Positions 11,425 to 20,413 of a DNA stretch of 20,413 nucleotides are shown in pieces. Positions within the stretch are counted from its first letter, which is position 1. Every line of letters begins with the position of its first letter. The notes below the pieces were generated by a model, which made no database searches, had not been told where the DNA came from, and saw only the letters and a list, made by a program, of their open reading frames with translations. The stretch is from a virus, in the IMG/VR virus record IMGVR_UViG_3300042691_037154, positions 1-20,413 of that record; one strand, written 5' to 3'. Both the position numbers and the translations under genes were made by a program.

Positions 11425-11485
11425 AGGATAGTTACAGCAAATTCTTAGCTAAACTTTATGGTTGTCTAGCGACAAAAGCTATCCT
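11425..11485 (+). ncRNA. AGGAT/ACAGCAA mini-RNA element, copy 1
   Basis: TTTT then AGGATAG (11425-11431) pairs with CTATCCT (11479-11485), followed by GTTTTAT. ACAGCAA follows the 5' arm. Interior pairs GCTA/TAGC and AAC/GTT. It starts just after the CCA of tRNA-Ala. Related to the copies at 17438 and 18187, but its inner hairpin differs. Confidence 0.7.
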
Positions 11486-17437: not shown

Positions 17438-17493
17438 AGGATGCGAACAGCAATATTAATAAATTCAACTGTTAATTGAAAAATAAGCATCCT
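17438..17493 (+). ncRNA. AGGAT/ACAGCAA mini-RNA element, copy 2
   Basis: AGGATGC (17438-17444) pairs with GCATCCT (17487-17493). ACAGCAA follows the 5' arm. Inside, TTCAA-CTGTTAA-TTGAA (17464-17480) is a 5-bp, 7-nt-loop hairpin whose loop equals a tRNA-Asn anticodon loop. Preceded by TTTT and followed by GTTAT, directly after tRNA-Ile. Confidence 0.75.
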
Positions 17494-17587: not shown

Positions 17588-17661
17588 TGGGGGTTAGTGT
17601 AATGGTAGCACCACAGACTTTGACTCTGTTAGTACAGGTTCGAACCCTGTACCCTCTGCCA
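17588..17661 (+). tRNA. tRNA-Gln (TTG)
   Basis: Acceptor TGGGGGT/ACCCTCT with an unpaired U1-U72 and discriminator G. Anticodon stem ACAGA with loop CTTTGAC, T-loop TTCGAAC, CCA encoded. A weak 1-72 pair is a known aid to GlnRS. Confidence 0.93.
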
Positions 17662-17819
17662 GTTAGCGGGATAGACGAGGACTTAGAGTCCTGCCCAACC
17701 TAGCACAAGGGCTCACTTGTGCGACTACATCAGAGTGGTTAGGAGCAGTATTTAGACTTGGTCATTCGAGACAATCCAGTGAGTCCTCTCAGGAGGATAG
17801 TTGGGCTCCCCATTTTTAT
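17662..17819 (+). other. structured spacer without a gene
   Basis: 158 nt between tRNAs. AGGACT-TAG-AGTCCT spans 17678-17692. GCCCAAC (17693-17699) pairs with GTTGGGC (17800-17806) around GCACAAG/CTTGTGC (17703-17722) and CCTC-TCA-GGAGG near 17785-17796. It looks like a further small structured RNA; no tRNA could be closed. Confidence 0.55.
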
Positions 17820-17894
17820 CGGTCCTTGGTGAAATGGATATCATCTCTGTCTTCGAAACAGAAGTCGTGGGTTCGACTCCTGCAGGACCGGCCA
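17820..17894 (+). tRNA. tRNA-Arg (TCG)
   Basis: Acceptor CGGTCCT/AGGACCG, discriminator G, anticodon stem TCTGT with loop CTTCGAA, T-loop TTCGACT, CCA encoded. Confidence 0.94.
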
Positions 17895-17896
17895 CT

Positions 17897-17974
17897 GCCC
17901 TTATGGACAAATTGGTAAAGTCGGCTCTCTCAAAAGGAGCAGTTTTCTCCGTTCGAATCGGAGTAAGGGCACCA
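17897..17974 (+). tRNA. tRNA-Leu (CAA) with short variable loop
   Basis: Acceptor GCCCTTA/TAAGGGC, anticodon stem GCTCT with loop CTCAAAA, T-arm CTCCG-TTCGAAT-CGGAG, CCA encoded. Only about 6 nt lie in the variable region, as in the Leu (TAG) gene at 10392. Confidence 0.88.
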
Positions 17975-17979
17975 ATTTT

Positions 17980-18054
17980 ATCGCTATAGTATAATGGATA
18001 ATACACTACGCTACGAACGTAGGAATAGAGGTTCGATTCCTTTTGGCGGTACCA
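17980..18054 (+). tRNA. tRNA-Arg (ACG), copy 1
   Basis: Acceptor ATCGCTA/TGGCGGT with U-G wobbles, anticodon stem CTACG with loop CTACGAA, T-loop TTCGATT, CCA encoded. A34 would need inosine for wobble reading. Confidence 0.93.
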
Positions 18055-18061
18055 GCTTAAC

Positions 18062-18180
18062 GGAGCCTTGGTGTAATGGTAGCACACGTAGAAAGTGATC
18101 CTGACAAGGATACAATACAGCAGCCAATTCATTCCATTCATAAGGACGAGATCGGGGTTCGAATCCCTGGGGCTCCACCA
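18062..18180 (+). tRNA. tRNA-like gene with insertion, possibly Val (GAC)
   Basis: 119 nt. Acceptor GGAGCCT/GGGCTCC, D-arm GTGT/GCAC, T-arm CGGGG-TTCGAAT-CCCTG and CCA are normal. Between D-arm and T-arm lie about 75 nt instead of about 22. The best anticodon loop is CTGACAA (GAC) on a weak stem, but ATCCT-GACA-AGGAT is a stronger hairpin there. About 40 extra nt follow. Confidence 0.6.
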
Positions 18181-18186
18181 AATTTT

Positions 18187-18246
18187 AGGATGCAGACAGC
18201 AATTCAAAAAAAAATCAAACTTGTAATTTGACTAAAAATGCATCCT
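18187..18246 (+). ncRNA. AGGAT/ACAGCAA mini-RNA element, copy 3
   Basis: AGGATGCA (18187-18194) pairs with TGCATCCT (18239-18246), followed by GTTTTAT. ACAGCAA follows the 5' arm. TCAAA-CTTGTAA-TTTGA (18215-18231) is a 5-bp, 7-nt-loop hairpin; read as an anticodon loop it is TGT (Thr). Confidence 0.75.
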
Positions 18247-18281
18247 GTTTTATAATAAGACTTTGCACTAGGGAAAACTAT

Positions 18282-18497
18282 ATGATACCTCTTATAGCCA
18301 AAAAAGAAATAGCACAAGAAAGATATAATATCTGTAAAGCCTGTGAAAGTTTTACTGCGGCAAAATTATGCAAAGAGTGTAATTGTTTTATGCCGGTTAA
18401 AGTTAAAATAGCTCATGCTTGGTGTCCTAAAACTAAATGGCTCAGTAAAATGGACCCAAGGGAACATCAAGCCAATGCTTATGAAAATTTAGAATAA
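18282..18497 (+). CDS. 71-residue Cys-rich mini-protein
   Basis: From ATG 18282 (AGGGA 8-12 nt upstream): MIPLIAKKEIAQERYNICKA and on. Cys pairs CKAC, CKECNC and AWCPKTKW suggest a small zinc or iron-binding ribbon. The KC..CNC.MP.KV......CP..KW pattern is shared by small phage proteins I have seen, without assigned function. An in-frame ATG at 18228 lies inside the preceding RNA element and lacks a ribosome site, so the later start is chosen. Confidence 0.72.
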   Translation: MIPLIAKKEIAQERYNICKACESFTAAKLCKECNCFMPVKVKIAHAWCPKTKWLSKMDPREHQANAYENLE

Positions 18498-18526
18498 AGT
18501 TATATAAGACTATTTAGGTGTGACTA

Positions 18527-18556
18527 TGTTGTAATGGTAGCAACCTAGACTGTGAC
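18527..18556 (+). pseudogene. 5' half of a broken tRNA-His gene
   Basis: GGTGTGACTATG... with D-arm GTTG/CAAC and D-loop AATGGTAG runs into CTGTGA, the His anticodon loop (GTG). It then diverges immediately. No 3' half follows; the GIY-YIG endonuclease frame starts instead. The intact tRNA-His at 19253 resembles it. Confidence 0.65.
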
Positions 18557-18582
18557 TATTGAGTATTGAACTAAATAGTAAT

Positions 18583-19251
18583 ATGTACTTCATACTTTAC
18601 AAAATAACTAACTTAATAAACAACAAATTCTACATCGGTGTACATCAAACTAATGATGTAGATGACGGATATATAGGCTCTGGGAAGGCATTACAAGCCG
18701 CATATAAAAAATACGGTGTTGATAATTTTAAAAAAGAGATAATACAATACTGTAGCAATGCAGAAGAAATGTACTTGATCGAAAAAGAGATAGTGCAACC
18801 GTTCTATAAAAATAATAAATCGTACAATCTTATGGAAGGTGGTAAAGGCGGATTTAACTACATAAATGATTTAGGTCAAAATGGCACACTTAAAGGTGTA
18901 GAAATTAGAAAAACACTTTTTACTGATCCTGAATGGTATGATAGTTGGAAAAATAAACAAAAGCAGGGTTGTAAAGATCACACAGCTACTATTTCAAAGG
19001 ATGAATTTCATCGTCGGGGAGTACAGGCAAATAAAACTGCAAAGTTAAAAAACGGTGTGTATTCATTTGAAGGTAAAGCGCATTCCGAAGAAACAAAATC
19101 AATAATTGGAAAAAAGAATTCAATTAATCAAAAAGGAGATAAAAACTCCAGATACGGTACTATGTGGATTACCAATGGTGTAGCCAGTAAATCTGTATCA
19201 AAAGATATTGTTATACCTGATGGATGGTATAAAGGTAGAAAAATAAAATAA
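18583..19251 (+). CDS. GIY-YIG homing endonuclease
   Basis: 222 residues from ATG 18583 (a TTG at 18559 would add eight residues inside the tRNA scar). The GIY-YIG domain is at the N-terminus: FILYKITN (GIY position at 4-6) and FYIGVHQT (YIG at 17-19), then GYIGSGKALQAAYKKYG and EEMYLIEKEI with the catalytic Glu region. The C-terminal part has a NUMOD3-like DNA-binding segment (GKAHSEETKSIIGKKNS) and the SRYGTMWITNG ending seen in phage homing enzymes. It is free-standing, placed between a broken and a whole tRNA-His gene, and more AT-rich than the tRNAs. It probably cuts tRNA-linked sites in competing genomes. Confidence 0.92.
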   Translation: MYFILYKITNLINNKFYIGVHQTNDVDDGYIGSGKALQAAYKKYGVDNFKKEIIQYCSNAEEMYLIEKEIVQPFYKNNKSYNLMEGGKGGFNYINDLGQNGTLKGVEIRKTLFTDPEWYDSWKNKQKQGCKDHTATISKDEFHRRGVQANKTAKLKNGVYSFEGKAHSEETKSIIGKKNSINQKGDKNSRYGTMWITNGVASKSVSKDIVIPDGWYKGRKIK

Positions 19252-19252
19252 T

Positions 19253-19326
19253 GGTGTTAGTGGTGTAGTGGTAACATAGCTGTCTGTGAAACAGTTGACG
19301 AGGGTTCGATTCCCCCTTTCACCCCA
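19253..19326 (+). tRNA. tRNA-His (GTG), imperfect acceptor
   Basis: D-arm GTGT/ACAT, anticodon stem GCTGT with loop CTGTGAA, T-loop TTCGATT. Acceptor GGTG/CACC pairs but T4 and T5 face T's, and the T-stem has one A-C mismatch. The 3' side is one base shorter than usual. The 3' end reads CACCCCA, allowing C73. Confidence 0.82.
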
Positions 19327-19337
19327 AATAAGATTAT

Positions 19338-19413
19338 GCTCCTTTAGCTGATGTGGTCATAGCAACGGATTGAAAATCCGTGGAACCCTGTTCGAATCGG
19401 GGAGGGAGCACCA
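19338..19413 (+). tRNA. tRNA-Phe (GAA)
   Basis: Acceptor GCTCCTT/AGGGAGC, anticodon stem ACGGA with loop TTGAAAA, T-arm CCCTG-TTCGAAT-CGGGG, CCA encoded. Confidence 0.95.
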
Positions 19414-19420
19414 ATACAAT

Positions 19421-19496
19421 GCCCCGTTCGTTTAATGGATAGGATATGATGCTACGAACGTCGGGATGGTGGTTCGATTCCATCACAGGGGTACCA
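19421..19496 (+). tRNA. tRNA-Arg (ACG), copy 2, imperfect
   Basis: Anticodon loop CTACGAA on stem TGATG/CGTCG, T-loop TTCGATT, ACCA end. The acceptor has GCCCC/GGGGT, then two mismatches and one extra nucleotide. Same anticodon as the 17980 gene, so it may be decaying or rely on a non-standard stem. Confidence 0.8.
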
Positions 19497-19513
19497 GTTA
19501 AAAGGGGATAAAC

Positions 19514-19693
19514 ATGCAAACAAAGCCTATTACATTTAAAAACTCTTTCAATGGTGAACAATGGATCTGCGAAGATACTAAGAAAATCAAATTGATCGAT
19601 GGAGTTAGTTATTTGACAGTGCATAAACCCGGCAGTTATCGCATGGTTCTGATGCGTAAAGACAGTCTAGTTCCATTAAAAACTAAACAGTGA
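19514..19693 (+). CDS. 59-residue phage protein, unknown
   Basis: Starts MQTKPITFKNSFNGEQWICE and ends VPLKTKQ, with AAGGGGAT at ribosome-site distance. A beta-rich sequence (WICEDTKKIKLIDGVSYLTVHKPGSYRMVLMRKDSL) predicts a small all-beta domain. I recall related small proteins in T4-like phages but no function. It sits between tRNA-Arg and tRNA-Thr; its TGA is adjacent to the tRNA-Thr gene. Confidence 0.75.
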   Translation: MQTKPITFKNSFNGEQWICEDTKKIKLIDGVSYLTVHKPGSYRMVLMRKDSLVPLKTKQ

Positions 19694-19767
19694 GCTCTTA
19701 TAGTTAAATGGCATAACGCATCCTTGGTAAGGATGTATTTCAAGTTCGATTCTTGGTAAGAGCACCA
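19694..19767 (+). tRNA. tRNA-Thr (GGT)
   Basis: Acceptor GCTCTTA/TAAGAGC, D-arm GTTA/TAAC, anticodon stem CATCC with loop TTGGTAA, T-loop TTCGATT, CCA encoded. It begins at the base after the stop codon of the preceding gene. Confidence 0.95.
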
Positions 19768-19775
19768 GCACCACA

Positions 19776-19850
19776 CTCGCTGTAGTTCAATGGATAGAAC
19801 GGGGTCCTCCTAAGACTCAGATCCAGGTTCGATTCCTGGTGGCGGGACCA
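19776..19850 (+). tRNA. tRNA-Arg (CCT)
   Basis: Acceptor CTCGCTG/TGGCGGG with G-U pairs, anticodon stem GGGTC with loop CTCCTAA, T-arm CCAGG-TTCGATT-CCTGG, CCA encoded. Last tRNA of the island. Confidence 0.94.
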
Positions 19851-19851
19851 C

Positions 19852-19859
19852 TATAAATA
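19852..19859 (+). promoter_or_regulatory. T4 late promoter (TATAAATA)
   Basis: Perfect 8/8 motif right after the CCA of tRNA-Arg and 6 nt before the desaturase ATG. No Shine-Dalgarno is present, so the late mRNA would be leaderless. Confidence 0.7.
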
Positions 19860-19865
19860 TGAAAT

Positions 19866-20413
19866 ATGATCACATATTTAAGATTTATTGACCCGGATCA
19901 AACGGCAGTGTCGCATGTTGCGATAAAAGTTAAATTACTAATTCTTATAAGTTTTATTGTAACTACATGGTGGGTAATTACCAACAACGAAACTTGGTGG
20001 ATAAATTTTTTATATTTTTATATTTCTTTGTTGATTGGCAGAATTTTTGTAGAAATAGGATTACACAGATTTTTCAGTCACAAAAGTTTTAAAACTTCTG
20101 AATTTAAAAAAAATTTTTTGTTGATCGGCGGAACCCTAATAGGATTGGGCAGTTGCATATCTTATGTAGGAGTACATAGAACTCATCATAGATATTCTGA
20201 CACTGTCAAAGATCCTCATAGTCCTAAAAATATAGGAATAATTAAAACTTGGCTAACAATGTGGGATAAAAATTGGATAGTTGATTTTTCTTCAGTTAAA
20301 GACTTGTTGAGAGATCCATTACAAATGTTTTTGCATAGACATTATTTTAAAATCGTATTAGGTTGGGTAATGATACTAAGTTTAATTTCTTATATCATAA
20401 ATTCGATAATTCC
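19866..20413 (+). CDS. fatty acid desaturase, N-terminal part
   Basis: 182 codons, cut by the window end. Hydrophobic segments (about 22-38, 47-62, 84-101, 148-180) alternate with histidine boxes: HRFFSH (67-72, HX4H) and HRTHH (104-108, HX2HH). These are the first two of the three di-iron boxes of acyl-CoA/acyl-lipid delta-9 type membrane desaturases. The enzyme introduces double bonds into acyl chains at the inner membrane using O2. It is a likely auxiliary metabolic gene, late-promoted, that could tune membrane fluidity or supply altered lipids. Start ATG 19866 follows the late promoter directly. Confidence 0.88.
   Translation, partial: MITYLRFIDPDQTAVSHVAIKVKLLILISFIVTTWWVITNNETWWINFLYFYISLLIGRIFVEIGLHRFFSHKSFKTSEFKKNFLLIGGTLIGLGSCISYVGVHRTHHRYSDTVKDPHSPKNIGIIKTWLTMWDKNWIVDFSSVKDLLRDPLQMFLHRHYFKIVLGWVMILSLISYIINSII

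What the first reader, a model, noticed from the sequence alone, without database searches (positions are those of the whole stretch)
18527..19326. GIY-YIG gene inserted at a tRNA-His anticodon loop
A tRNA-His 5' half ends at CTGTGA, inside the anticodon loop. The endonuclease gene follows, then another tRNA-His with similar 5' sequence. The likely history is homing into tRNA-His with loss of the 3' half and a flanking second copy, so the two tRNA segments act as direct repeats. Alternatively the half gene is used in trans.
Basis: partly seen in the sequence, partly recalled or inferred. Interest (0 to 1): 0.68.

Follow-up and report, generated by a model that had tools for sequence, protein, structure and literature searches.

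The report
Homing endonuclease that replaced a tRNA
A selfish DNA-cutting gene has landed inside a phage's histidine tRNA gene, leaving only its front half, and brought along a different intact histidine tRNA gene from another phage; it is a natural, both-parents-visible example of a known kind of gene hopping (T4 SegB-type homing).

Summary
At 18520-18557 lies the 5' half of a tRNA-His ('HisA'). A complete SegB-like GIY-YIG gene follows (ATG 18583, stop 19251), then an intact but different tRNA-His ('HisB', 19253-19326). Both parental alleles exist without the nuclease. In 49 of 49 other phage loci carrying the same 5' half, HisA is intact and uninterrupted; the window matches one exactly for 78 nt up to base 18557 and then diverges. 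The right flank (19250-20413) differs by one base from a contig where HisB follows a tRNA-Ser with no nuclease between. The second tRNA is not a repeat of the first but the replacement gene that came with the element, and no 3' half remains for use in trans. The protein is 41% identical to T4 SegB and keeps residues equivalent to catalytic Y17 and G19. Relatives sit in tRNA arrays beside many tRNA species, normally joined at the 3' CCA end of the upstream tRNA; a junction in an anticodon loop was seen only here. Verdict: a new member of a known kind, moderately interesting. Permuted-tRNA-like elements noticed alongside deserve separate study.

The parts
18506..18519 (+). 5' leader of tRNA-HisA; in intact relatives it pairs with the trailer as a covarying 12-bp extension of the acceptor stem
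   Evidence: 30 distinct leader/trailer pairs, almost all fully paired
18520..18557 (+). 5' half of tRNA-HisA (acceptor 5' strand, D arm, anticodon stem 5' strand, anticodon loop)
   Evidence: continuous with intact tRNA-His in 49/49 loci; 78-nt exact match to L145 ending at 18557
18557..18558 (.). left junction, recipient allele A to element
   Evidence: intact copies read CTGGTAGT (or near variant) after 18557, the window reads ATTGAGTA
18558..18582 (+). short nuclease leader: SegB-motif-like GTATTGAAC (18563-18571), late-promoter-like ACTAAATA (18570-18577), no obvious Shine-Dalgarno
   Evidence: similar to leader of sister gene L002 and of other family members
18583..19251 (+). SegB-like GIY-YIG homing endonuclease, 222 aa, intact
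   Evidence: phrog_314 E=6e-39; 41% identity to T4 SegB, YIG residues Y17 and G19 present
19249..19252 (.). right junction, element to allele B
   Evidence: window 19250-20413 has one mismatch to L096, where tRNA-Ser plus a 6-nt spacer precedes HisB
19253..19326 (+). intact tRNA-HisB (GTG), with encoded CCA
   Evidence: ARAGORN and Rfam; the same gene in six loci without the nuclease
19338..19492 (+). tRNA-Phe and tRNA-Arg(ACG) of allele B, replacing the tRNA-Phe of allele A where present
   Evidence: present in L084/L096; allele A loci have HisA, some with a different Phe, before the same downstream ORF
19514..19693 (+). 59-aa ORF shared by both alleles, right-hand homology
   Evidence: 92-100% identical in nine relatives

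Best explanation
This is a SegB-type free-standing homing endonuclease captured at the joint of two alleles of a phage tRNA array. A donor phage carried the nuclease directly upstream of tRNA-HisB, followed by tRNA-Phe, tRNA-Arg and the 59-aa ORF. In a mixed infection the nuclease cut the recipient's tRNA-HisA. The break was repaired from the donor: the right side joined by homology in or beyond the 59-aa ORF, so the HisA 3' half and its neighbours were replaced by nuclease-HisB-Phe-Arg; the left side was joined without long homology at the HisA anticodon loop. HisB restores the lost function. Shown: both empty alleles, both junctions, an intact nuclease, family placement. Inferred: the cut itself, its exact place, the order of events, and the unseen donor.
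For: Empty allele A in 49 loci and empty allele B in 6 loci. Left flank 96.9% to L089 and 78 nt exact to L145, ending at 18557; right flank 1 mismatch in 1164 bp to L096 starting at 19250. SegB homolog with active-site residues intact. Homologs lie in tRNA arrays, usually with their stop codon at the 5' end of a tRNA of any species, and the neighbouring species changes on the tree almost as often as in shuffles (26 vs 28.2). Klebsiella phages give a clean empty/filled pair at such a site. HisA has a perfect SegB motif (GTTCGAATC, reverse of RAWTSGAAC) starting 12 nt 3' of the junction; published SegB sites are enriched for this motif within 20 bp of the cut (PMC13096335).
Against: No donor with this nuclease upstream of HisB was found, and neither junction was found in a second contig. 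HisB has the same T-loop motif, so the motif alone does not explain why HisA was hit. The usual left boundary in the family is the tRNA 3' end, not the anticodon loop, so the junction may mark end-trimming rather than the cut. The leader lacks a clear ribosome site.
Confidence: 0.8

Rival explanations
1. Illegitimate recombination joined two tRNA-array alleles, and the nuclease was only a passenger already upstream of HisB; it did not make the break.
For: The left junction shows no long homology; allele blocks in these arrays are shuffled in many combinations without any nuclease.
Against: The nuclease lies exactly between the two alleles, its target class is tRNA genes, and the perfect T-loop motif lies 12 nt from the junction.
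Confidence: 0.12
2. One-step insertion into an ancestor that carried both HisA and HisB, deleting everything between them.
For: Would give the same final sequence.
Against: None of the six HisB loci has HisA in the fetched stretch. Only 2 of 49 HisA loci have a second tRNA-His nearby, and HisB was not found with HisA.
Confidence: 0.06
3. The tRNA half is used in trans, or spliced with a 3' half, to make a second tRNA-His.
For: The 5' half is unmutated.
Against: No 3' half in the window; no group I intron or other splicing RNA by Rfam; no mutations simply fits a recent event; intact HisB is present.
Confidence: 0.01
4. Chimeric metagenome assembly.
For: Single contig; junction not seen elsewhere.
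Against: Sequences at the left junction share only a few bases, too few for k-mer bridging; the right junction is of the family's usual form.
Confidence: 0.03

Closest known systems
Phage T4/T6 SegB
   Same: Free-standing GIY-YIG endonuclease in a tRNA array, 3' end a few bases from a tRNA gene (T4: 5 nt from tRNA-Arg); 41% protein identity, YIG residues intact; spread known to involve the flanking tRNA region
   Different: Here the left junction is inside a tRNA anticodon loop, leaving a dead half gene, and the incoming tRNA is of the same isoacceptor as the one destroyed
SegB homologs in Klebsiella Jiaodavirus phages (Nispero, Merci)
   Same: Same gene family, same position just upstream of a tRNA gene
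   Different: Insertion at the C|CA end of tRNA-Met; both flanking tRNAs stay whole
HEGs at boundaries of genetic exchange (PMC10448857)
   Same: Nuclease gene at the edge of a recombined segment (abstract)
   Different: That work centres on ICP1 and HEG islands, not tRNA junctions (abstract and outline only were read)

Membership tests
SegB-type homing endonuclease | GIY-YIG catalytic domain with intact active-site residues | tested here: met
   Y17 and G19 of the YIG motif align with T4 SegB; phrog_314 E=6e-39; Pfam GIY-YIG below the curated cut-off
SegB-type homing endonuclease | Sequence relationship to T4 SegB | tested here: met
   41% identity in the alignment
SegB-type homing endonuclease | Lies in a tRNA array, abutting a tRNA gene | tested here: met
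   1 nt from tRNA-HisB; same in most relatives that lie in tRNA arrays
SegB-type homing endonuclease | Absent from the same locus in close relatives (mobile) | tested here: met
   empty alleles A and B
SegB-type homing endonuclease | Late promoter with a hairpin hiding the start site | tested here: inconclusive
   ACTAAATA matches 6/8 of TATAAATA; fold z-score -1.2, not significant
SegB-type homing endonuclease | Cuts tRNA genes and is inherited preferentially in mixed infection | not testable with these tools
   needs enzyme and phage crosses
Group I intron endonuclease | Encoded in a self-splicing intron | tested here: not met
   no group I intron by Rfam to E=1; 3' exon absent
Split or trans-spliced tRNA | Matching 3' half elsewhere | tested here: inconclusive
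   absent from the 20-kb window; rest of the genome not held
tRNA-targeting integrative element | Integrase, and restoration of the same tRNA by an att repeat | tested here: not met
   no integrase inside the element; the downstream tRNA is a different gene of another allele

The most novel reading that the evidence does not exclude
The element is a self-compensating tRNA-swap cassette: it destroys the recipient's tRNA-His and always supplies a functional tRNA of the same isoacceptor, so the match of His for His is selected rather than chance.
Probability: 0.1. Interest if true: 0.6.

Novelty: new member of a known kind. Interest (0 to 1): 0.4.

Why it matters
Natural homing events of free-standing endonucleases are rarely seen with both empty parental alleles and both joints at base resolution. 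This one suggests how SegB-type genes reshuffle phage tRNA arrays: a tRNA gene is broken on one side and a whole block of foreign tRNAs is brought in on the other. The family survey also indicates where such genes usually sit, at the 3' CCA end of one tRNA and the 5' end of the next, which limits damage.

Tried and rejected
L002, the sister gene, seemed to have a fragment of tRNA-Asp upstream; 154 of 591 unrelated tRNAs matched as well, so rejected. Direct-repeat or duplication origin of the two tRNA-His: rejected, different genes from different alleles. A start-codon hairpin between 18507-18515 and 18572-18580 (ACTATTTAG/CTAAATAGT): the whole leader folds no better than shuffles (z -1.2). Searches for the donor by exact leader and 3'-end patterns: none. 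Solved-structure search by sequence: no hit. Empty sites for other family members among fetched loci: no clean pair, so named Klebsiella and T-even phages were used instead. The 2008 SegB paper (PMC2330249) is not in the library; my memory that it reports a 27-bp site containing the T-psi-C stem-loop motif is unverified here.

Full report
What is there. The window is a 20.4-kb virus record with SSB and UvsX genes of T4 type and 32 tRNAs found by ARAGORN. At 18520-18557 lies the 5' half of a tRNA-His ('HisA'), ending in the anticodon loop. A 25-nt leader follows, then an intact 222-aa ORF (18583-19251), and one base later a complete tRNA-His ('HisB', 19253-19326). Then come tRNA-Phe, tRNA-Arg and a 59-aa ORF.

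Empty sites. Relatives found through the 59-aa ORF showed two nuclease-free arrangements. Allele A (L085-L092): the same upstream region, an intact HisA, in some a tRNA-Phe, then the ORF. Allele B (L084/L096): tRNA-Ser, HisB, tRNA-Phe, tRNA-Arg, the ORF. A scan for the HisA 5' half gave 49 loci, all with intact HisA and no nuclease inserted in it. A scan for HisB gave six loci, preceded by several different neighbours, none with a nuclease. The window is allele A up to 18557 (78 nt identical to L145; 96.9% to L089 over 17649-18557) and allele B from 19250 (one mismatch in 1164 bp to L096). The 692 bases between are the nuclease element. The absence of any change in the remaining HisA half argues for a recent event.

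The nuclease. It matches the phage homing-endonuclease family phrog_314 and is 41% identical to T4 SegB; Y17 and G19, whose mutation abolishes SegB activity (PMC13096335), are present. 80 related loci were fetched. Many lie in tRNA arrays, with the stop codon touching or overlapping the 5' end of a tRNA. The neighbouring tRNA species changes almost as freely on the tree as in shuffles (26 changes against 28.2; as low in 6 of 200), in line with the published lack of isotype preference.

Where such genes usually join. tRNAs directly upstream of family nucleases lack an encoded CCA in 26 of 32 cases, against 122 of 570 other tRNAs in the same loci (Fisher p=6e-12; related loci are not fully independent). 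A clean pair confirms the point: Klebsiella phage KSKp has ...GCCTCCAAATAATTGGAC and Nispero has ...GCCTC[nuclease]TAAATAATTGGAC, so the element entered at C|CA of tRNA-Met and ends at the spacer before tRNA-Gln, sparing both genes. The window's right joint has this usual form; its left joint, inside the anticodon loop, does not. In T4 against RB5, similarity also breaks inside the tRNAs flanking segB and two tRNAs (Tyr, Asn) are missing, so tRNA-damaging or tRNA-replacing events have probably occurred elsewhere in the family.

Mechanism. Published SegB sites are enriched for RAWTSGAAC within 20 bp of the cut (23 of 83 sites). Its reverse complement, GTTCSAWTY, is the T loop shared by most tRNAs, which can explain the wide choice of tRNA neighbours. 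HisA has a perfect copy starting 12 nt 3' of the left joint; at the usual C|CA joint the motif region ends about 13 nt 5' of it. The one-sided replacement fits the asymmetric co-conversion described for I-TevI, which stays bound to one side of its cut (PMC2988022). My reading: the donor had the nuclease upstream of HisB; it cut HisA in the recipient; the right end was repaired by homology at the shared ORF; the left end was sealed at the trimmed HisA end. The break itself and the donor are inferred.

Regulation. Several family leaders carry a SegB-motif-like sequence just upstream of a TATAAATA-type late promoter (at least 8/9 motif matches in 10 of 46 leaders against 1.8 in shuffles; some of these do not lie directly before the promoter). 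This resembles I-TevI, whose own binding site overlaps its late promoter, and suggests autorepression; untested. The window's leader is short, with a weak promoter match and no clear ribosome site, so expression may be poor.

Limits. One contig only; neither joint was found elsewhere, although records very near the window may be hidden from the searches. The enzyme's activity, cut site and donor are not shown.

Side observation. While reading the relatives I met a recurrent RNA scaffold in these tRNA arrays, some copies of which appear to hold circularly permuted tRNAs. It is not part of this finding, and is listed under Noticed in passing because it may be more novel than the finding itself.

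Noticed in passing
window 11425-11485, 17438-17493, 18187-18246; also L144:730-845, L136:4783-4897, L123, L137, L106, L117, L001 and many others: A conserved RNA scaffold AGG-N4-n(1-5)-CAGCAA-[cargo]-N4'-CCT, mostly followed by GTT, recurs in tRNA arrays of these phages: 99 distinct elements in 54 loci; 102 of 159 seeds have their own 7-nt complement against 1.3 when arms are swapped. Short forms (52-69 nt) often hold one hairpin resembling an anticodon arm (loops CTTTTAA, CTTCTAA, CTTGTAA, CTGTTAA). No Rfam family matched the copies in the window.
   Followed up: partly
L144:730-845 (Arg TCT), L136:4783-4897, L137 and L123 (TGA), L106, L117, L102, L116, L145, L001: 23 of these elements hold what reads as a circularly permuted tRNA: T arm, acceptor 3' strand, 3-12 nt linker (T-CCA-T in L144), acceptor 5' strand, D arm, in several with an anticodon arm first. 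A stricter scan gave 20 distinct hits outside ARAGORN tRNAs across all loci (not all in the scaffold), 0 in mononucleotide-shuffled DNA (1.4 Mb). No paper on permuted tRNA genes in phages was found in the library. Potentially much more novel than the assigned finding.
   Followed up: partly
allele A loci L102-L150 (window remnant 18506-18519): tRNA-HisA is enclosed by a covarying 12-bp leader/trailer helix beyond the acceptor stem in 30 distinct sequences, with a constant mismatch at -1/73 and U or C, not G, at position -1.
   Followed up: partly
window 17664-17815: Conserved structured non-coding RNA with changes in its hairpin that keep pairing in relatives (GCACAAG/CTTGTGC, GCATAAG/CTTATGC) and long closing stem GCCCAAC/GTTGGGC; no Rfam match.
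   Followed up: no
window 18060-18181: tRNA-like gene (acceptor stem, D arm, T arm, CCA) with about 70 nt between D and T arms, nearly identical in L086, L087 and L089; not called by ARAGORN or Rfam.
   Followed up: no
leaders of L004, L007, L011, L046, L051 and other family loci: SegB-motif-like sequence GACTCGAAC just upstream of a late-promoter-like sequence before the nuclease start codon: possible autorepressor operator.
   Followed up: partly
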